Positions 13,472 through 28,071 of a stretch of DNA of 33,884 nt are shown piece by piece; the first letter of the stretch is position 1, and every line of letters begins with the position of its first letter. The notes beneath the pieces are model-generated. The model ran no database searches. It saw only the letters and a program-made list of their open reading frames with translations, and was not told where the DNA came from. Source of the stretch: a virus; IMG/VR virus record IMGVR_UViG_3300031758_000291, positions 1 through 33,884 of that record. One strand, written 5' to 3'. The position numbers and the translations under genes were made by a program.

Positions 13472-13702
13472 ATGAAACTCCCCGATGAATTGACTCCGCA
13501 GGAGCATGGCGTTATTAAAACGGCTCTGCTGGAATTGGAAACACGCAACGCTGTCTGGCTGAAGGACTCGCATTGGTCGCCTGAGATGCGGGCGGGTTTG
13601 CAGCGGGATATGGAGCAGGCTAGTGCGCTGCGCGAGAAGTTGCGCGAGGTGTATCTGGTGCCGATGGCACGCCATTGGAGCAAAGGGAGGGCGGCACGAT
13701 GA
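13472..13702 (+). CDS. Small helical protein coupled to the integrase; possible directionality factor
   Basis: A 76-residue protein from the ATG at 13472; an in-frame ATG at 13412 would run through the right-hand 12-bp repeats and is less likely. It is mostly helical and charged (LELETRNAVWLKDSHW, then MEQASALREKLREVY) with a basic C-terminus (HWSKGRAAR). It ends in an ATGA overlap with the recombinase. Coupling to int and nearness to attP suggest an accessory or excision factor. No HTH motif is evident, so this is inference from position. Confidence 0.7.
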   Translation: MKLPDELTPQEHGVIKTALLELETRNAVWLKDSHWSPEMRAGLQRDMEQASALREKLREVYLVPMARHWSKGRAAR

Positions 13703-15054
13703 AAACGGCTCTGGGATCATACTCGATTTATCGGCAGCCAAAGGCGCGGGCGGAGGGGCTGCCTCAGTTTGAGTGGAAGTGGGTCGTGCGGTTCTTTGTC
13801 GGGACGGGCAAGCCGCTGACGAGATCGAAGCACCCCTACCCTATTTGTGATAAGTGCTTGGCGGAGGTGGGGAATCCGGTGGAGACGCGGCCGAATTGCG
13901 GGTGCCAGGTGGTGGTGCGGAAGTGGGCGGAGTTGTTTCTGAAGACGCACACGGCGATGCTGCAACGCGGCGAGATGGACCGGCTGACGGAGCTTTTAAC
14001 GCCGAAGCAGTTCACGTCACCTGCGGAGGTGCTGGCGGTGTATCGGGAGCGCGGGCCGGAGGACCGGGTGCAACGGTTGAACTTTCTGGCGGCGGTGTTT
14101 GAGCAGACGACGGGGAAGGACATTTCATGTGTGAGGTGGGAGGATTTGACGGCGGACCTGAAGCTGGACTGGGCCGAGCTGCGCCAGGAGGCTGGCCGCC
14201 GCGGCTGGCTGGGGCTGGGTGCTGGCCGGAACATGCCGGCCAATGGTTGGGCGATGCTGCGTGAGCTGAAGCGTGCGGGCAAGCTGCCTGCGCTGGACGA
14301 TCGCACCGAGGCGGCATGGAACACGACGGTGAACACTTACATGACGAGCATCAATTCCATTTTTGGCGAGAAGGCGCGGACGAAGATCCTGCGGGGGCTG
14401 AACGTGCCGCCGCTGGCGGAGTTTCTGGGCTGCCGTCTGGCTTTGCCTGCGCCGAAGGGGCACAAAGAAATCGAGGCGGGTGTGATGGCGCGGATTGATG
14501 CGGCGCTGCCGGTGCTGCGGGCGGAGGATGCGCGGGTATGGTTGTTTGAGCAGCTATGTGAGGAGACGGGCATCCGCCCAGTGTCGGTGCGGCGGCTGGT
14601 GCCGGGTGATCTGCGGGCGCTGACGACGGCGGAGGCGGCGGAGTGGAGGTCACGCATGGCGGCGGAGTGGCGCGTCGAGGAAGCGGATCTGTGCGAGTTT
14701 GGCGGGCTGCTGCGGGTGGCGGCGGCGAAGCATGGGGCGGAGATCCTGACGCCCATCTCGGCGGAGGTGGTGGCGGTGGCGCTGGCGGTGCAGACGGCGG
14801 GCAGCCTGATCGGTGCCAGGCATGAGACGGAGGGCCGCCAGCTTCATGCGCGGCTGAATGCGTTTCTGCGCGTCTGTGGCGTGTCGGGCACGCAGGCGGC
14901 GTATTTGCTGAGGCATCGCAAGGGGCAGCTTCTCCGTCGTTTTGGTGGCAAGGCAGCGGCGGCGGCGGGCCTGGGCCATACGAGCGAGGCGATGGCGGGA
15001 CGGTATAGCCGCGAGGATCGCGTGGTGCCTGCGGTGGGCCTGCGGGTGGCGTGA
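13699..15054 (+). CDS. int: Divergent tyrosine recombinase (phage integrase)
   Basis: A 451-residue protein. The ATG at 13699 has AAAGGGAGG upstream and overlaps the previous stop. The C-terminal catalytic signature is readable: Arg293 in ETGIRPVSVRRL, Arg405 in YLLRHRKG, His427 in GLGHTS and the nucleophile Tyr436 in GRYS, nine residues after the His. In the HxxR box the usual His is Tyr402. Residues about 45-70 carry a Cys cluster (CDKC, then NCGC) that looks like a zinc ribbon, unusual for this family. Beside the tRNA-Gln fragment it is the obvious integrase for that site. It is closed by the terminator at 15138. Confidence 0.85.
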   Translation: MKTALGSYSIYRQPKARAEGLPQFEWKWVVRFFVGTGKPLTRSKHPYPICDKCLAEVGNPVETRPNCGCQVVVRKWAELFLKTHTAMLQRGEMDRLTELLTPKQFTSPAEVLAVYRERGPEDRVQRLNFLAAVFEQTTGKDISCVRWEDLTADLKLDWAELRQEAGRRGWLGLGAGRNMPANGWAMLRELKRAGKLPALDDRTEAAWNTTVNTYMTSINSIFGEKARTKILRGLNVPPLAEFLGCRLALPAPKGHKEIEAGVMARIDAALPVLRAEDARVWLFEQLCEETGIRPVSVRRLVPGDLRALTTAEAAEWRSRMAAEWRVEEADLCEFGGLLRVAAAKHGAEILTPISAEVVAVALAVQTAGSLIGARHETEGRQLHARLNAFLRVCGVSGTQAAYLLRHRKGQLLRRFGGKAAAAAGLGHTSEAMAGRYSREDRVVPAVGLRVA

Positions 15055-15137: not shown

Positions 15138-15167
15138 AAAAGCCGCAGGACTGGTCCTGCGGCTTTT
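15138..15167 (+). terminator. Perfect bidirectional rho-independent terminator
   Basis: A 13-bp perfect stem AAAAGCCGCAGGA/TCCTGCGGCTTTT with a CTGG loop. The A-tract and T-tract make it work for both strands. It separates int (plus) from the convergent modification operon (minus). Confidence 0.95.
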
Positions 15168-15175
15168 GATTTTCT

Positions 15176-15232
15176 GGAATGTTTCCGGTTTTGCGGGTGC
15201 TAACCGGAAATGTTGTCTGGATAGTTCTTGTT
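15176..15232 (-). repeat. 58-bp dispersed repeat, copy A (inverted relative to 27002)
   Basis: Read on the minus strand this matches 27002-27059 at roughly 80% identity with one single-base gap. Shared blocks include AACAAGAA, TATCCAGAC, TTTCCG and GCAAAACCGGAAA. This copy also contains a perfect 9-bp inverted repeat TTTCCGGTT/AACCGGAAA around an 11-base loop. A 13-codon ORF (15200-15241, minus, starting in an ATGA overlap with the gene upstream) reads MSHNKNYPD and then four more codons, echoing the NKNYPD tail of the methyltransferase that ends in copy B. Confidence 0.85.
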
Positions 15233-15237
15233 GTGGC

Positions 15238-15999
15238 TCATGCTGCGAGCCCTAGCTCGCGGGGTGGTAGCGCCTTGCCTTCGAGCCAGTGGCCGAGCGC
15301 CTTTGCTTGTCTGCCATTTTCGGTGCCTTGCATCCATCCGGTGCCGTCCACCGATTCGACTCTCCATCGTTCGCAGATGTGGAGCCTTTCGACTTCATTC
15401 ACTCGCCCCACATGCACGCGGGCACCTGTCCGCGCCCACATTGGCAGCGAGCGCCATTTCCATTCCGTGGTGCCTCCTATGAAGATCACTTCGGCATTCG
15501 CGGGGATGTCTGCGGGCGTCATCCCATCTTGCACGGCGATTGCCAGCGGCCACCCGTAGCGAGCTGCGACGGGTGCATATTGCTCCCACTTTGCCAGCGT
15601 GGCCTCGCGGTCTGCCACGACATCGGGCACGAGCACCCATTTAGGTGTCAGTCCCTGGGCTCTCACGTTGCCGAGCATTGCCAGCCATGCTGCTTCGTCC
15701 CACGGTCTGCCTGTTGTCCAGCTCGCGAAGGCGTCATTGTCGAGTGCGAACGGCATCCATGGCCGGAGCTTCGTCTTCTTCATCGCGGACGGCCCGACGA
15801 GCCAGCCGATGCGGCCATCGTAGCGGCCTGCCCAATAGTGGACGATGGCGCTGGAGTTATTGGACGGCATGACCATCAGTTTCCGCTTCTCATCGCGTGC
15901 CATGATCTGCGCCCAATGCAACCCGCCACAACCAGACGCTGCATGGAATGCCGCAGGGGCATCATGCGCAAGGTCGAAGGCTGGAGGTGCGGCATCCAT
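15238..15999 (-). CDS. DpdA/TGT-like TIM-barrel protein, putative deazapurine DNA modification
   Basis: A 253-residue protein; the ATG at 15999 lies three bases after the upstream stop, and Met33 (15903) is an alternative start closer to the conserved part. Motifs: ALDND at 85-89, VPDVVAD 124-130, QDG 157-159, IGGTTEWKW 174-182, VHVGRVN 195-201 and SVDGTGW 216-222. I recognise this pattern from phage proteins related to tRNA-guanine transglycosylase, called DpdA-like, which exchange guanine in DNA for 7-deazaguanine bases and so block restriction. No preQ0 synthesis genes (folE, queC-E) are in the window, so the base would come from the host. Catalysis is inferred from family. Confidence 0.62.
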   Translation of the reverse strand: MDAAPPAFDLAHDAPAAFHAASGCGGLHWAQIMARDEKRKLMVMPSNNSSAIVHYWAGRYDGRIGWLVGPSAMKKTKLRPWMPFALDNDAFASWTTGRPWDEAAWLAMLGNVRAQGLTPKWVLVPDVVADREATLAKWEQYAPVAARYGWPLAIAVQDGMTPADIPANAEVIFIGGTTEWKWRSLPMWARTGARVHVGRVNEVERLHICERWRVESVDGTGWMQGTENGRQAKALGHWLEGKALPPRELGLAA

Positions 16000-16002
16000 G
16001 AG

Positions 16003-16668
16003 CTATGCGTTCGCCATACACGCCAAGCGCAGCAGCGCGTCCCGAAAGCGAATCGGGGTAGCGTTGGCCTCGCGGGGTGACAGCGTTGGTTTGTTGCGGT
16101 CTTTGCCGCGTTGGTCTTGAAATCCGATTTGGTGAGTGCCGACAGGTTTCGACCAGTCCATTTCCTCCGGCTGTCCTTCGCCGCGCCAGTAGAGCCATGT
16201 CCGCTTTGTCGCTCGATGGCCGTATGCCGATTGCCAGACTTCGCACACCCAACCAATCCCGCTTCGCGTCCACTTGCCGCGTTCCGGCGCGTTGAGATTG
16301 TAGGCGAGCCATGCTCGCGTATTTGCCGGATGTTCCAGCACTCCACCCCAGCAGTTCACTGCAGCGAGTGCCGCCGCGAAGCATCCGCCGTCGTTCATCG
16401 GGCGGTTATGCTCGCCGCCCCATCGAGCGTAGTTTGCCACTCCGAGGTTGCCGTATCGCTGGCACGGCGGGTGAGCCACGACCGGCAGCGGGCCGTTGTA
16501 TAGTCTGGCATCGCGGCTTTCCGGCCATGCGTCCACCCATGCCAGGTCGGAGTAGCATCCGTCAGGTTGCACGAACAGCGCAGCCACAAATGGCGAACAA
16601 TGCGCTGCACCCAATGCCTGCCGCGCATCGCTTTCCGGCAATTCGATAGTCTGTTGAGCGGCAGTCAT
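16003..16668 (-). CDS. PPCQ-motif DNA methyltransferase-like phage protein
   Basis: A 221-residue protein starting in an ATGA overlap with the gene upstream. It has HPPCQ at 66-70, the catalytic-loop motif of C5-cytosine methyltransferases, and LEHPA at 111-115, resembling the ENV-type motif. It lacks a clear N-terminal FxGxG SAM motif and is shorter than a normal C5 methylase, so substrate and chemistry are uncertain. The conserved Trp/Cys-rich centre (GWVCEVWQSAYGH, TWLYW) is typical of a phage-restricted subfamily. Three bases before a DpdA-like gene, it probably takes part in the same base modification. It could be a non-methylating relative. Confidence 0.62.
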   Translation of the reverse strand: MTAAQQTIELPESDARQALGAAHCSPFVAALFVQPDGCYSDLAWVDAWPESRDARLYNGPLPVVAHPPCQRYGNLGVANYARWGGEHNRPMNDGGCFAAALAAVNCWGGVLEHPANTRAWLAYNLNAPERGKWTRSGIGWVCEVWQSAYGHRATKRTWLYWRGEGQPEEMDWSKPVGTHQIGFQDQRGKDRNKPTLSPREANATPIRFRDALLRLACMANA

Positions 16669-16859
16669 GGGTGAGCTTGTGCGTTAGAGCCGCCAAAATG
16701 CGCGTCTAGGACTGCGCCGGGTTTGTCTCCCAGAGCGGCCCGCGTTTCTGGGAGGATATGCACTGTGAGTTTGATCTTGCCCAGCGCCGGACGCCCAGCG
16801 CCGGGAGCCCGTTTGCGGGGCTCTCCGGCCTTGGTGAGTTGTGGCTTTTTGCGGCTCAT
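16665..16859 (-). CDS. Small ribbon-helix-helix-like DNA-binding protein
   Basis: A 64-residue protein; the ATG at 16859 overlaps the upstream stop (ATGA), preferred over a longer upstream frame. A basic N-terminus (SRKKPQLTKAGEPRKR) with a GRPALGK segment is followed by KLTVHILPETRAALGDKPG, which has the strand-then-helix look of RHH repressors. It ends in an ATGA overlap with the methylase-like gene. Probable role: autoregulation of the modification operon. The fold assignment comes from pattern only. Confidence 0.65.
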   Translation of the reverse strand: MSRKKPQLTKAGEPRKRAPGAGRPALGKIKLTVHILPETRAALGDKPGAVLDAHFGGSNAQAHP

Positions 16860-17122
16860 GCCCAGTTGACCTCCTCGCAATTGTTCAGGCGCTTGAGTTC
16901 GGCTTCCAAGTAGTCGGCACCGTCGGCGGAAAGGCATTTTTCATCGGTGCCTTGATCGCCGTCCACGAAGTGATATTCGGGGTTGAGCTGAACGCGGTCG
17001 CTGCCTTCTGAGTGGCTGACTTCTGCCATTGCTGCGCCGGAGATGAAGATTTTGGAGATGCGGAGTTTGTTCATATTTTTGTGAGTTGAGTTTGTGTCTT
17101 GCTCGTCTTGAGCATGAGTCAT
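16856..17122 (-). CDS. Small acidic protein, first gene of the minus-strand operon
   Basis: An 88-residue protein. The start at 17122 is chosen because GAGAGG lies five bases upstream on the minus strand; an internal Met at 17074 is the alternative, and an upstream in-frame start at 17167 has no ribosome site. It contains ISGAAMAEVSHSEGSDRV and an acidic C-terminus (YLEAELKRLNNCEEVNWA). No membrane segment or recognised domain. It is translationally coupled to the RHH-like gene. Function unknown. Confidence 0.65.
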   Translation of the reverse strand: MTHAQDEQDTNSTHKNMNKLRISKIFISGAAMAEVSHSEGSDRVQLNPEYHFVDGDQGTDEKCLSADGADYLEAELKRLNNCEEVNWA

Positions 17123-17223
17123 TATCGCCTCTCTATTTCCTACGTCAACAATTATTTCACACGTCACGAATTATTTTTCGGGGTCGCTGGTTGCGGCTCT
17201 AACCAAGTGCTGGTGGCAACGGC

Positions 17224-17495
17224 TCATTCACCCCTGTCCTCCATTCCACGCCCTCCGTTCGCCGTCGCCACAGCTCCAACGTTCGGCTTCTTCCACACGC
17301 CGGGCTTCACCCATTGCTTGCCTTGGGCCGCATACTCGGCAGCGCCAGCAGCATCGCAGAGAGCCATCTGTATTGCGTCGAGTAGAAGTTTGCCATTTTG
17401 CGGAGGCTCACAGCGAAAATCGCCAAAGCCGAACCATCCGCTGCACCCTCAACGGCTGCCGCCGTTGCCCGTTTCATTGTTTTCTTCTTTGCCAT
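17224..17495 (-). pseudogene. Probable frameshifted small gene
   Basis: The frame starting at 17495 (MAKKKTMKR) reads credibly for about 21 codons, then turns into an out-of-frame-looking tail ending at 17307. Shifting the frame by -1 near 17430-17440 restores a much more protein-like sequence (GWFGFGDFRCEPPQNGK, later EYAAQGKQWVKPGVWKK) running to a TGA at 17224-17226. In that second frame a stop lies just upstream and no start codon precedes the good region, so it cannot be an independent gene of the same length. Either a real indel, a sequencing error or programmed frameshifting. No slippery heptamer is visible. Confidence 0.5.
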
Positions 17496-24751: not shown

Positions 24752-25276
24752 ATGACACCTACGACATCACCGCCCTCCGAATTGGGAGCAGCACATGGTT
24801 CAGCCTGGAAGGTGATCTTTTTGGACATTGACGGCGTTCTCTCATCATTCGGCCTTCGTGGACTTTGCGGAACGAGGCTCGACCTATTCGCCGACATCGT
24901 GAAGCAGACGGGCGCGGAGGTGGTGCTATCATCAACATGGAGATATCCACACTGCCGTGATCAACGCATGAGGCTGCAACAGGAACTTGGAAAGCGAGAT
25001 GTGGAGTTCTTCGGCATGACTCCGATTGTTGGGACGAATCGCGGTCAAGAAATTAAGCAATGGCTCAGCTCAGCCAGTCGCCGCCATCAGATCAACTTCG
25101 TGATTCTCGATGACGATCCGAACAATGAAATGGGCGAGCTAAAACCAAATCTTGTCAAATGTGACGGATACTCAGGACTCACGCCCGACATCGCCGCAGA
25201 GGTGGTGCGTCGGCTGAACGCTCAATCTCTGCCAACCCTGGGGCACGACCAGGGCAACACGACAAAGGCCCAATAA
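24752..25276 (+). CDS. HAD-superfamily phosphatase-like protein
   Basis: A 174-residue protein with a strong ribosome site (AAAGGAG) before the ATG at 24752. FLDIDGVLSS (Asp25, Asp27) is the HAD nucleophile motif. LSSTWRY follows at about residues 60-66 (motif II Ser/Thr), and ILDDDPN at about 118-124 is the acidic motif IV. It lacks a cap of usual size, as in the short HAD proteins associated with nucleic-acid repair or nucleotide metabolism. Likely a phosphatase on a nucleotide or a nucleic-acid end; the substrate is unknown. First gene of an accessory block of lower GC than its neighbours. Confidence 0.82.
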   Translation: MTPTTSPPSELGAAHGSAWKVIFLDIDGVLSSFGLRGLCGTRLDLFADIVKQTGAEVVLSSTWRYPHCRDQRMRLQQELGKRDVEFFGMTPIVGTNRGQEIKQWLSSASRRHQINFVILDDDPNNEMGELKPNLVKCDGYSGLTPDIAAEVVRRLNAQSLPTLGHDQGNTTKAQ

Positions 25277-26045: not shown

Positions 26046-26312
26046 ATGGATACTCCAGCAAGCCCCCCTTCCGTTGCCACCAGTGGCGTGTTATGCGCCG
26101 ATGCCCTGCCGTCCCCAGATGACGAGCAAGCGTATTCCGATTGGCTCGACACGCTGACAACTCAATGCACGTGTGAAGGCGTCGATAAGCCGTGTGACGG
26201 CCTGCTGGCTGGCGGTCTCTGTGATGACCTGCATCTTTGCTCTGATGCTTTCGCTGCTGACCTGGATTCGCATAACGCAGAGGTATCCCACACGAAGGGC
26301 GAAAACAGATGA
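26046..26312 (+). CDS. Small Cys-containing acidic protein
   Basis: An 88-residue protein starting after the HTH gene and ending in an ATGA overlap with the methyltransferase. Six Cys are present (one near residue 17, then CTCEG, KPCDG, LCDDL, LCSD), with many Asp. They could form a small zinc site or disulfides. There is no signal peptide, so the protein is presumably cytoplasmic. Other frames over this stretch are less protein-like. Function unknown. Confidence 0.55.
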   Translation: MDTPASPPSVATSGVLCADALPSPDDEQAYSDWLDTLTTQCTCEGVDKPCDGLLAGGLCDDLHLCSDAFAADLDSHNAEVSHTKGENR

Positions 26313-27022
26313 TGACTACAGGACAAACTCCGCCGCCCGAAGTGTTGGGATCACCGTCTTGTTCGGCGTTGCTGGATCTCCGCCTTGGTGACTGCATGGA
26401 AATCATGGCGACCTTCCCTGATGGCCACTTCGACCTCGCAATCGTCGATCCGCCATACGGCATCAATGCGGGGGCAGTGAAGAAGTATTGCAGCAAGAAC
26501 GCCAAGACATACAACCCGAAGCCGTGGGACAGCAAGACACCCGATCAAGGCTACTTCGATGAGCTAATGCGAGTCTCCAAGAGGCAGATTGTGTGGGGCG
26601 GAAACTACTATGCGAGCAAGCTGCCGGACAGCCGTGGATGGATCTTCTGGGACAAACGCAAGTATGTGGACAACTTCGCCGATGGGGAACTGGCATGGAC
26701 AAGCTACGACCGCAACCTGAAAAAGGTGACTCTCCAGCATCACGGATTCCTCACTGCCGACGTGGACAGCGCGATCCACCCGACGCAAAAGCCTGTATTC
26801 TTGTATCGGTGGGTTCTGGAAAACTACGCCAAGCCCGGCGACCGCATCCTCGATACGCACATGGGAAGCGGAAGCATCGCCATCGCCTGCCACTATGCGG
26901 GACACCCGCTGACGGCCTGCGAAATCGACCCAGAATACTTCGCCGACGCCTTGGATCGCATCCAACGGGAGACGCGGCAACTCGATCTTTTTTCTTCGCC
27001 GAACAAGAATTATCCAGACTGA
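26309..27022 (+). CDS. Beta-class DNA methyltransferase (N6-adenine or N4-cytosine), orphan
   Basis: A 237-residue protein. The catalytic motif DPPYG (47-51) comes first and the SAM-binding motif THMGSGSIA (183-191) comes last, which is the beta-class order. HPTQKP near residue 155 is the conserved motif before the SAM site. The product transfers a methyl group to adenine N6 or cytosine N4. There is no restriction enzyme next to it, so it probably shields phage DNA or alters expression. The C-terminal residues NKNYPD are encoded inside the 58-bp repeat that also occurs at 15176-15232. Confidence 0.9.
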   Translation: MMTTGQTPPPEVLGSPSCSALLDLRLGDCMEIMATFPDGHFDLAIVDPPYGINAGAVKKYCSKNAKTYNPKPWDSKTPDQGYFDELMRVSKRQIVWGGNYYASKLPDSRGWIFWDKRKYVDNFADGELAWTSYDRNLKKVTLQHHGFLTADVDSAIHPTQKPVFLYRWVLENYAKPGDRILDTHMGSGSIAIACHYAGHPLTACEIDPEYFADALDRIQRETRQLDLFSSPNKNYPD

Positions 27023-27059
27023 CTTTTCCGCTCAACACCTGCAAAACCGGAAATATTCT
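27002..27059 (+). repeat. 58-bp dispersed repeat, copy B, ahead of the IntI-like gene
   Basis: Covers the last six sense codons of the methyltransferase and the leader of the IntI-like gene, ending seven bases before its ATG. It matches 15176-15232 (minus strand) at about 80%, with a shared 13-bp block GCAAAACCGGAAA. It contains a 6-bp inverted repeat TTTCCG/CGGAAA. Candidate recombination site or remnant of a past rearrangement. Confidence 0.85.
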
Positions 27060-27066
27060 AAAACTT

Positions 27067-28071
27067 ATGAACCTGCGTGATACACTGGAACAAGTTCGGC
27101 TGACGTGCCGCATGCGGCGGTTGTCGAGGCACACGGAAGAGTCTTATGCTGGGTGGATCGTGCGGTTTGCCAGGCATGTAGCCAGCAGGGCGGAAGAGTC
27201 ACGGGAGGAGCGGGTGCGGAGTTTTCTCGAGCAGATGGCCCCGTGTTGCTCGGCATCGACGCAAAACCAGGCTTTGAATGCCATCGTGTTCTTTTACCGC
27301 GATGTGCTGCGGCAGCCGCTGGGTGATCTGGGGAAGTGGGCGCGGGCGAAACGGCCGGCACGGCTGCCGTCGTGGCTGAGTCCTGACGAGATGCGGCGTT
27401 TGTTCGATGCGATGACACCGGGGCCGCGACTGATGGCGCAGGTGGCGTATGGCAGCGGCGTGAGACTGGCGGAACTGCTGGCGCTGCGGGTGAAGGACAT
27501 CGACCTCGATGCGTGCCTCATCACGGTGCGCGGCGGCAAGGGTGACAAAGACCGTGTGACATGCCTGCCTCGCTCGCTGGTGTTCACGTTGCGGGCGCAT
27601 TTGGAGCGCATTCGGTTGCTTTACGATGCCGACCGCCAGGCGGGGGCGATGCCGGTGTATCTGCCGGACCAACTGGAGCGCAAATATCCAAACGCAGGCC
27701 GTGAGTGGCCGTGGTTTTGGCTGTGGCCTGCGGCGAATGAAAGCACCGATCCACGCAGCGGCATCGTGCGCAGGCATCACATCCATGAGGACACGCTGGG
27801 CAAGGCGCTGAAGAATGCCCGCCGTCGCTGCGGACTGAGCAAACGAGTCACGGCGCACACGCTGCGTCATAGCTTTGCCACGAACTTGCTGGCGAACGGC
27901 GCGAGTATTACTCAGGTGCAGGAATTGCTCGGGCACAGCAGCGTGGAAACGACGCAAATTTACACGCACTGCATTCCGCAGTTTGCCCGCAGCATCACGA
28001 GTCCGATGGACACGCTGCCGCAACCTGAGAATGTCGTGCCGTTTGAAGCGCAAGCAAGGAGGGCGGCATGA
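27067..28071 (+). CDS. intI-like: Integron-integrase-type (IntI-like) tyrosine recombinase
   Basis: A 334-residue protein; the ATG at 27067 is preferred because the longer frame runs through the methyltransferase gene. Catalytic residues: Arg133 (SGVRLAELL), His264 and Arg267 (AHTLRHSFAT), His290 (LLGHSSV) and Tyr299 (TQIYTH). Residues about 198-244 carry the extra IntI segment: LERKYPNAGREWPWFW, then DPRSGIVRRHHIHEDTL, nearly as in class 1 integron integrases, and the end has SPMDTL. This insertion separates IntI from XerCD and phage integrases. No cassette array or attC is visible. It is followed directly (ATGA) by the terminase small subunit, so it is embedded in the phage transcription unit. 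Confidence 0.88.
   Translation: MNLRDTLEQVRLTCRMRRLSRHTEESYAGWIVRFARHVASRAEESREERVRSFLEQMAPCCSASTQNQALNAIVFFYRDVLRQPLGDLGKWARAKRPARLPSWLSPDEMRRLFDAMTPGPRLMAQVAYGSGVRLAELLALRVKDIDLDACLITVRGGKGDKDRVTCLPRSLVFTLRAHLERIRLLYDADRQAGAMPVYLPDQLERKYPNAGREWPWFWLWPAANESTDPRSGIVRRHHIHEDTLGKALKNARRRCGLSKRVTAHTLRHSFATNLLANGASITQVQELLGHSSVETTQIYTHCIPQFARSITSPMDTLPQPENVVPFEAQARRAA

What the first reader, a model, noticed from the sequence alone, without database searches (positions are those of the whole stretch)
15238..17122. Minus-strand operon for probable DNA hypermodification
A DpdA/TGT-like protein and a PPCQ-motif protein are coupled behind an RHH-like regulator, convergent to int. If the DpdA-like assignment holds, the phage inserts a 7-deazaguanine base using host-made precursor, since no preQ0 genes are in view. 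The pairing with a methylase-like protein lacking a clear SAM loop is unusual and might produce a new modified base.
Basis: partly seen in the sequence, partly recalled or inferred. Interest (0 to 1): 0.72.

Follow-up and report, generated by a model that had tools for sequence, protein, structure and literature searches.

The report
Compact phage DNA-base-swapping enzyme as cargo
A phage carries, in an exchangeable cargo slot next to its integrase, a small enzyme that very probably swaps guanines for 7-deazaguanine bases (most likely in its own DNA, using precursor from the host); the methylase-like gene beside it is an unrelated fellow passenger and not a partner.

Summary
The minus-strand genes are real. 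The 253-aa protein Q (15238-15999) is a compact TGT/DpdA enzyme. Its AlphaFold model matches tRNA-guanine transglycosylases best, and it shares with phage 9g DpdA three aspartates (two presumed catalytic), the GG pair and the DpdA-type histidine. Relatives of Q form overlapping operons with queD (about 20 loci) or queC (2 loci), or follow a Vut_1/YhhQ-type preQ0 transporter gene. So 7-deazaguanine chemistry is well supported; DNA as the target is likely but inferred. No queC, queD, radical-SAM or transporter gene was found in the window or its longer twin contig, so host-made precursor is the best guess.

The PPCQ protein P (16003-16668) is C5-cytosine-methyltransferase-like, lacks the SAM loop, and is widespread. 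It is not a partner of Q: among 50 Q records it occurs only in the window and its own twin, and none of 50 P records holds Q. A joint new base is therefore unsupported. The RHH identity of the small upstream gene was not confirmed.

The P-Q operon lies in a swappable slot (15233-17279) at a repeated palindromic element beside the integrase. The phage also carries an integron integrase.

Verdict: a new variant of a known kind.

The parts
15238..15999 (-). Q: compact DpdA/TGT-like transglycosylase, 253 aa (conserved core from about residue 41)
   Evidence: phrog_15826 E 4.7e-33; AF2 pLDDT 83.6; best structural matches TGT, Z 14.7; D87, D126, G175, G176, H196, D218 shared with classical DpdA; profile match to DpdA E 1.2e-6, shuffled controls >= 0.083
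16003..16668 (-). P: minimal C5-cytosine-methyltransferase-like protein, 221 aa (PPC, EHP and Q..GH..K motifs; no FxGxG SAM loop, no target-recognition domain)
   Evidence: phrog_12600 E 9e-56; AF2 pLDDT 90.5; top fold matches are C5-MTases but weak: Foldseek E 7e-3, Z 8.8
   Evidence: ORF listing; no Pfam or PHROG hit
16856..17167 (-). upstream ORF of unknown function, up to 103 aa, first gene of the operon
   Evidence: ORF listing; no credible Pfam or PHROG match
17121..17148 (-). promoter-like sequence TTGACG-16-GATAAT ahead of the operon
   Evidence: consensus scan, 10/12 matches, only hit in the region
15138..15167 (.). bidirectional terminator-like hairpin, 13-bp stem, between Q and the convergent integrase-like gene
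15182..15226 (-). repeated palindromic element at the 3' end of the cargo (TTTCCGGTT...AACCGGAAA)
   Evidence: DNA fold z -5.7; exact family in 8 IMG/VR contigs, one of them this phage's twin; degenerate copy at 27008-27050
15233..17279 (.). cargo slot: this segment is replaced by other genes in relative L205, while flanks stay 83-99.7% identical
13675..15054 (+). convergent integrase-like ORF, 459 aa
   Evidence: tyrosine-recombinase boxes read from sequence; no model match; identical protein beside the same element in L205 and L208

Best explanation
Q is a compact DpdA-type transglycosylase. By TGT chemistry (inferred), Asp218 attacks C1' of a guanine nucleotide and expels guanine; the pocket lined by Asp126, Gln157 and Gly175/176 then installs a 7-deazaguanine base (preQ0 or a derivative). 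The target is most likely phage DNA, giving resistance to restriction. This phage appears to make no precursor and would draw on the host's queuosine pathway. P is an independent C5-methyltransferase-like gene that shares the transcription unit only because both were loaded into the same exchangeable cargo slot beside the integrase. Shown here: fold, conserved residues, operon links of relatives to preQ0 genes, cargo swapping. Inferred: reaction, DNA as substrate, host precursor, anti-restriction role.
For: Fold: AF2 model with core pLDDT above 90; the best matches are nearly all TGT (2qzr Z 14.7, rmsd 3.6 over 212 residues). Residues: D87, D126, G175, G176, H196 and D218 are the only columns invariant across the 8 Q-family and 4 classical DpdA proteins aligned. 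Profile: A5 vs DpdA E 1.2e-6, Prob 90.7; 40 shuffled controls E >= 0.083. Context: queD directly adjacent in 19 loci, mostly with 4-nt overlap and in either order; queC-Q in L023 and queC-queD-Q in L026; a weak PTPS match directly upstream in the L052 record; Vut_1 transporter gene directly upstream in Bhagsy and ReqiPine5. Precursor: no QueD, QueC, Vut_1 or radical SAM in window or twin; 7 of 8 genomes holding Q relatives have QueC and 8 of 8 have TGT. Independence of P. Cargo slot.
Against: No direct evidence that the substrate is DNA. Q lacks about 90 C-terminal residues of 9g-type DpdA. There is no significant profile match to bacterial TGT or to nt-1 DpdA2 with the thin alignments used. 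Some DpdA-only phages are unmodified (Orion, according to PMC8306585). Many Q records are fragments, and the window's host is unknown.
Confidence: 0.72

Rival explanations
1. Q modifies tRNA or another RNA instead of DNA, for example to raise queuosine-type modification during infection.
For: Best structural matches are tRNA-TGTs. PMC6884629 proposes a tRNA-boosting role for phages that carry preQ0 genes without DpdA.
Against: Q has the His of DpdA and profile similarity to DpdA but not detectably to TGT. It ends about 35 residues after the presumed catalytic Asp, so it lacks the Zn-binding C-terminal part (CxCxxC...H) that is invariant in the TGT alignment. Hosts of relatives already have TGT.
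Confidence: 0.1
2. Q attaches or recognises a 7-deazaguanine on a protein, like Cap10 of type IV CBASS.
For: Cap10 (9ntn_B) is among the structural matches, Z 14.3. PMC11996544 shows that the TGT fold has been remodelled for protein deazaguanylation.
Against: A Q-family profile search of PDB sequences returns no Cap10. Q keeps the presumed nucleophile and substrate aspartates of DpdA. QueD partners make a free base precursor. No conserved protein partner was found.
Confidence: 0.07
3. P and Q act in sequence to make a new hypermodified base.
For: Adjacent and probably co-transcribed here, 3 nt apart.
Against: Pairing exists only in this one phage: P in 2 of 50 Q records (window and twin), Q in none of 50 P records. 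P has no fixed partner. L003 and L004 carry a 96% identical Q without P.
Confidence: 0.04
4. Q is a degenerate or binding-only protein (decoy or regulator) without catalysis.
For: Compact size; in the Escherichia phage phiG7 record the relative is split into two ORFs.
Against: Presumed catalytic residues invariant over wide divergence; dN/dS 0.05-0.14.
Confidence: 0.05

Closest known systems
DpdA of Enterobacteria phage 9g (phrog_887; PMC6884629)
   Same: TGT-type motif order, Asp residues, GG, His196; linked to preQ0 genes
   Different: Q belongs to a separate family (phrog_15826), is about 90 residues shorter at the C terminus, and is 16-18% identical to the four classical DpdAs
Short 'DpdA-like tRNA-guanine transglycosylase' of actinobacteriophages (Sonali gp81, Bhagsy gp55, Majeke gp54)
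   Same: Same family, phrog_15826 (Sonali and Bhagsy tested); already named DpdA-like by annotators
   Different: About 31-36% identical to Q over the aligned part; the Bhagsy copy follows a Vut_1 transporter gene; Sonali also has a classical DpdA and QueC
DpdA-only phages such as Salmonella phage 7-11 and Pantoea phage MED16 (PMC6884629, PMC8306585)
   Same: DpdA without preQ0 genes; their dADG-modified DNA is a precedent for host-supplied precursor
   Different: Their DpdA proteins were described in other subgroups; not compared here
Vibrio phage nt-1 DpdA2
   Same: Phage preQ0-inserting enzyme of the TGT superfamily
   Different: 464 aa, reported to lack His196, no profile match to Q
Cap10 of type IV CBASS (PDB 9ntn)
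   Same: TGT fold, Z 14.3
   Different: Acts with Cap9 on a protein N-terminus; no sequence match to the Q profile
Microvirus Ebor Gp8 'putative DNA methylase' (PMC11980548)
   Same: Same family as P
   Different: 163 aa; activity also untested
C5-cytosine methyltransferases (M.HaeIII, M.HhaI, DNMT3)
   Same: Fold and PPC/E/Q-K motif positions of P
   Different: P lacks FxGxG and the target-recognition domain

Membership tests
9g-type phage DpdA | TGT-like TIM-barrel fold | tested here: met
   AF2 model and VIA-align Z 14.7 to TGT
9g-type phage DpdA | catalytic/substrate residues D, D, GG, D | tested here: met
   D87, D126, G175, G176 and D218 invariant with 4 classical DpdAs
9g-type phage DpdA | conserved His196 | tested here: met
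   H196 aligned with 9g H196; importance of this His taken from PMC6884629
9g-type phage DpdA | membership of the same sequence family (phrog_887/7068) | tested here: not met
   Q hits only phrog_15826; classical DpdAs hit phrog_887/7068. So Q is filed as a sister family, not as 9g-type DpdA
9g-type phage DpdA | inserts 7-deazaguanine into DNA | not testable with these tools
   needs LC-MS
compact DpdA-like family (phrog_15826) | profile match and conserved motifs | tested here: met
   E 4.7e-33; motifs in A5
compact DpdA-like family (phrog_15826) | linked to preQ0 genes in relatives | tested here: met
   queD adjacent in 19 loci, queC in 2; Vut_1 in 2 phages. Not so in the window itself
DpdA2 (nt-1) | sequence relationship to nt-1 DpdA2 | tested here: inconclusive
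   hhalign E 0.26 against a single sequence; Q has the His that DpdA2 is reported to lack
bacterial tRNA-guanine transglycosylase | Zn site CxCxxC...H in the C-terminal part | tested here: not met
   invariant in the TGT alignment; absent from Q, which ends about 35 residues after the presumed catalytic Asp
Cap10 (type IV CBASS) | sequence match and gene partners Cap9/CD-NTase | tested here: inconclusive
   no PDB sequence match; no CD-NTase search made
C5-cytosine DNA methyltransferase (P) | motif IV PC catalytic Cys | tested here: met
   C69 invariant in 47 sequences
C5-cytosine DNA methyltransferase (P) | motif VI Glu (ENV) | tested here: met
   E112 invariant, in EHP context
C5-cytosine DNA methyltransferase (P) | motif I FxGxG SAM loop | tested here: not met
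   sequence has LFVQPDGCY at the expected place; no helix between strands 28-31 and 45-48 in the model
C5-cytosine DNA methyltransferase (P) | fold | tested here: inconclusive
   top hits are C5-MTases but weak: Foldseek E 7e-3, Z 8.8

The most novel reading that the evidence does not exclude
The P-Q operon is a mobile cassette. The phage carries its own integron integrase, and a repeated palindromic element that is not a canonical attC marks both the 3' end of the deazaguanine cargo and the end of the N6/N4-methyltransferase gene just ahead of that integrase. Phages of this group would trade DNA-modification genes one cassette at a time by site-specific recombination.
Probability: 0.3. Interest if true: 0.7.

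Novelty: new variant of a known kind. Interest (0 to 1): 0.46.

Why it matters
Proteins of phrog_15826 are 'unknown function' in PHROGs and 'DpdA-like' by name only in some annotations. The overlapping queD/queC operons and the residue signature shared with classical DpdA make a 7-deazaguanine role directly testable. At about 205 residues this may be the smallest transglycosylase core of its kind. Some phages (Sonali, R29Z) encode both this form and a classical DpdA, which raises the question of two targets or two bases. The cargo slot beside an integrase, in a phage that also carries an integron integrase, suggests a route by which anti-restriction genes are traded.

Tried and rejected
Direct Pfam and NCBIfam hits for Q or P: none. 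Sequence search of PDB with either protein or profile: nothing credible. Profile match of Q to bacterial TGT or nt-1 DpdA2: not significant with 4 and 1 sequences, so inconclusive. P-Q pairing as a conserved module: rejected. Canonical attC sites (RYYYAAC...GTTRRRY) near the element or near the integron integrase: none by simple regular expression. Rfam on the window: no match. Relatives could not be drawn for a virus record. folE, queF and amidotransferases were not searched by dedicated models in the 50 records; a Pfam tally of 36 window and twin ORFs showed none.

Full report
OBSERVATION. The minus-strand cluster is real. Order of transcription: an ORF of up to 103 aa (17167-16856), a 90-aa basic ORF (16937-16665, probably starting about 16859), P (16668-16003, 221 aa), Q (15999-15238, 253 aa). 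The junctions are 4-nt overlaps or a 3-nt gap. One promoter-like sequence precedes most of the cluster (17148-17121) and a 13-bp bidirectional terminator-like hairpin (15138-15167) separates Q from the convergent 459-aa integrase-like ORF. Q shows dN/dS 0.05-0.14 and P 0.13-0.14 against relatives, so both are under purifying selection. The RHH label for the small ORF is not backed by Pfam or PHROGs.

WHAT Q IS. No Pfam or NCBIfam model hits. PHROGs puts Q in phrog_15826, function unknown, E 4.7e-33; short proteins of Sonali, Bhagsy, ReqiPine5, ZS04 and others belong there too, some annotated 'DpdA-like'. Classical DpdAs fall in phrog_887/7068. An alignment of 21 diverse Q proteins keeps P70, D87, N88, P125, D126, Q157, D158, G159, G175, G176, K181, H196, R199, N201, D218, G219. 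Profile comparison with four classical DpdAs gives E 1.2e-6, probability 90.7% over 144 columns; 40 column-shuffled controls gave E 0.083 or worse. When 8 Q-family and 4 classical DpdA proteins are aligned together, only D87, D126, G175, G176, H196 and D218 are invariant. By established TGT chemistry these correspond to the catalytic and base-recognition residues, plus the histidine that PMC6884629 names as conserved in DpdA and missing in DpdA2. The AlphaFold2 model (mean pLDDT 83.6, core above 90) has many TIM-barrel matches in Foldseek; after realignment the top rows are nearly all TGT, led by 2qzr with Z 14.7, rmsd 3.6 over 212 residues. Cap10 of type IV CBASS is also there (Z 14.3).

CONTEXT OF Q. 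103 IMG/VR stretches encode close relatives. In 19 of the 80 fetched loci queD lies directly against Q, mostly with a 4-nt overlap, downstream in 17 and upstream in 2; queC directly precedes Q in L023, and L026 has queC-queD-Q (Pfam checks). Another record (L052) has a weak PTPS match directly upstream. Several of these loci are near-identical contigs, so the number of independent events is smaller than 19, but the two orders of queD and the separate queC cases are different arrangements. In Bhagsy and ReqiPine5 a Vut_1-family gene, the family of the preQ0 transporter YhhQ, directly precedes Q. Sonali and R29Z carry both a classical DpdA and a Q-family gene. This ties the family to 7-deazaguanine metabolism. 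That DNA is the target follows from similarity to DpdA and is not shown here.

PRECURSOR. The window (G000) and a 42,580-b contig (G001) are near-identical, differently cut copies: window 1-26279 corresponds to the end of G001, identical wherever compared, and window 26352-33884 matches its start at 97%. Neither has PTPS/QueD, QueC, radical SAM (QueE) or Vut_1. Among eight genomes (mostly MAGs) whose contigs hold Q relatives, seven have QueC and all have TGT. DpdA-only phages with deazaguanine DNA are known (PMC6884629, PMC8306585), but one tested member, Orion, was unmodified (PMC8306585). Host-supplied preQ0 is therefore plausible for the window, with the host unknown.

WHAT P IS. HPPC, EHP and Q..GH..K are conserved. 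The model (pLDDT 90.5) matches C5-cytosine methyltransferases first, but weakly (Foldseek E 7e-3, Z 8.8). In Ebor the relative is called a putative methylase and its activity is untested (PMC11980548).

P AND Q ARE NOT PARTNERS. P is found in 2 of 50 Q records, the window and its twin, and no Q in 50 P records (no internal positive control in that set). P has no conserved neighbour. L003 and L004 have a 96% identical Q without P, and DNA identity to the window is 93% over 15230-16011, almost exactly the Q gene.

CARGO SLOT. Relative L205 has the identical integrase-like protein and keeps 83-99.7% DNA identity on both sides, but window 15233-17279 is replaced by other genes. The left border is at a palindromic element (15182-15226) with a strong hairpin (z -5.7) that recurs, exactly, in eight IMG/VR contigs including this phage's twin. 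In L003/L004 two copies, one or both degenerate, bracket Q. A degenerate copy at 27008-27050 follows an N6/N4 methyltransferase gene and precedes a gene scoring as integron integrase (TIGR02249, E 6e-106, above its cut-off). Integron integrase genes also sit in the slot of L206 and L210. No canonical attC was found. Integrons in phages are known (PMC9892861). Whether this integrase, the phage integrase, or plain homologous recombination moves the cargo is open.

VERDICT. The TGT/DpdA assignment is close to certain; a role in 7-deazaguanine chemistry is very likely; DNA as substrate is likely; host precursor is the best guess; a joint new base with P is unlikely. The finding is a new variant of a known kind: a compact DpdA sister family with preQ0-gene operons in relatives, here as swappable cargo.

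Noticed in passing
window 27067-28071 (+): Integron integrase gene (TIGR02249, E 6e-106, above cut-off) in the phage, with intact catalytic-region boxes by eye; no canonical attC found nearby.
   Followed up: partly
window 15182-15226 (-) and 27008-27050 (+); L204-L211: Repeated about 42-bp palindromic element at the 3' end of cargo genes, often giving ORF ends NKNYPDNISG or NKDYPEHISG; the exact form occurs in 8 IMG/VR contigs.
   Followed up: partly
L206 4880-5902, L210 1838-2851: Integron integrase genes inside the same cargo slot of related phages; a truncated remnant appears in L211.
   Followed up: partly
window 26309-27022 (+) and L200 762-1466: N6/N4 DNA methyltransferase (PF01555). 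The twin's copy starts MDAAPFQLEITTDAPAAFHAPSC, like the start of Q (MDAAPPAFDLAHDAPAAFHAASGC), suggesting swapped coding regions behind a shared 5' end.
   Followed up: partly
L181 (Sonali), L187 (R29Z), L183 (phiG7): Phages that carry a classical DpdA and a Q-family gene; in phiG7 the latter is split into two ORFs.
   Followed up: partly
L183 4001-4458 (phiG7) and PP627280.1 (SHIN8): Q-family matches lie across two annotated ORFs in two Escherichia phages, possibly pseudogenes or sequencing errors.
   Followed up: no
L182 3935-4576 (ZS04): A Q-family protein annotated 'DarB-like antirestriction protein', probably misnamed.
   Followed up: no
L083 4046-4702 (Persinger): A P-family ORF of 218 aa that is not annotated as such in the record.
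   Followed up: no
window 24752-25276 (+): HAD_SAK_2 domain protein (RNA-repair type HAD), E 1.3e-23.
   Followed up: no
L003 6024-6941; L186 4589-5506: PAPS-reductase-like genes near Q in L003/L004 (by eye) and directly after Q in ReqiPine5 (annotated).
   Followed up: no
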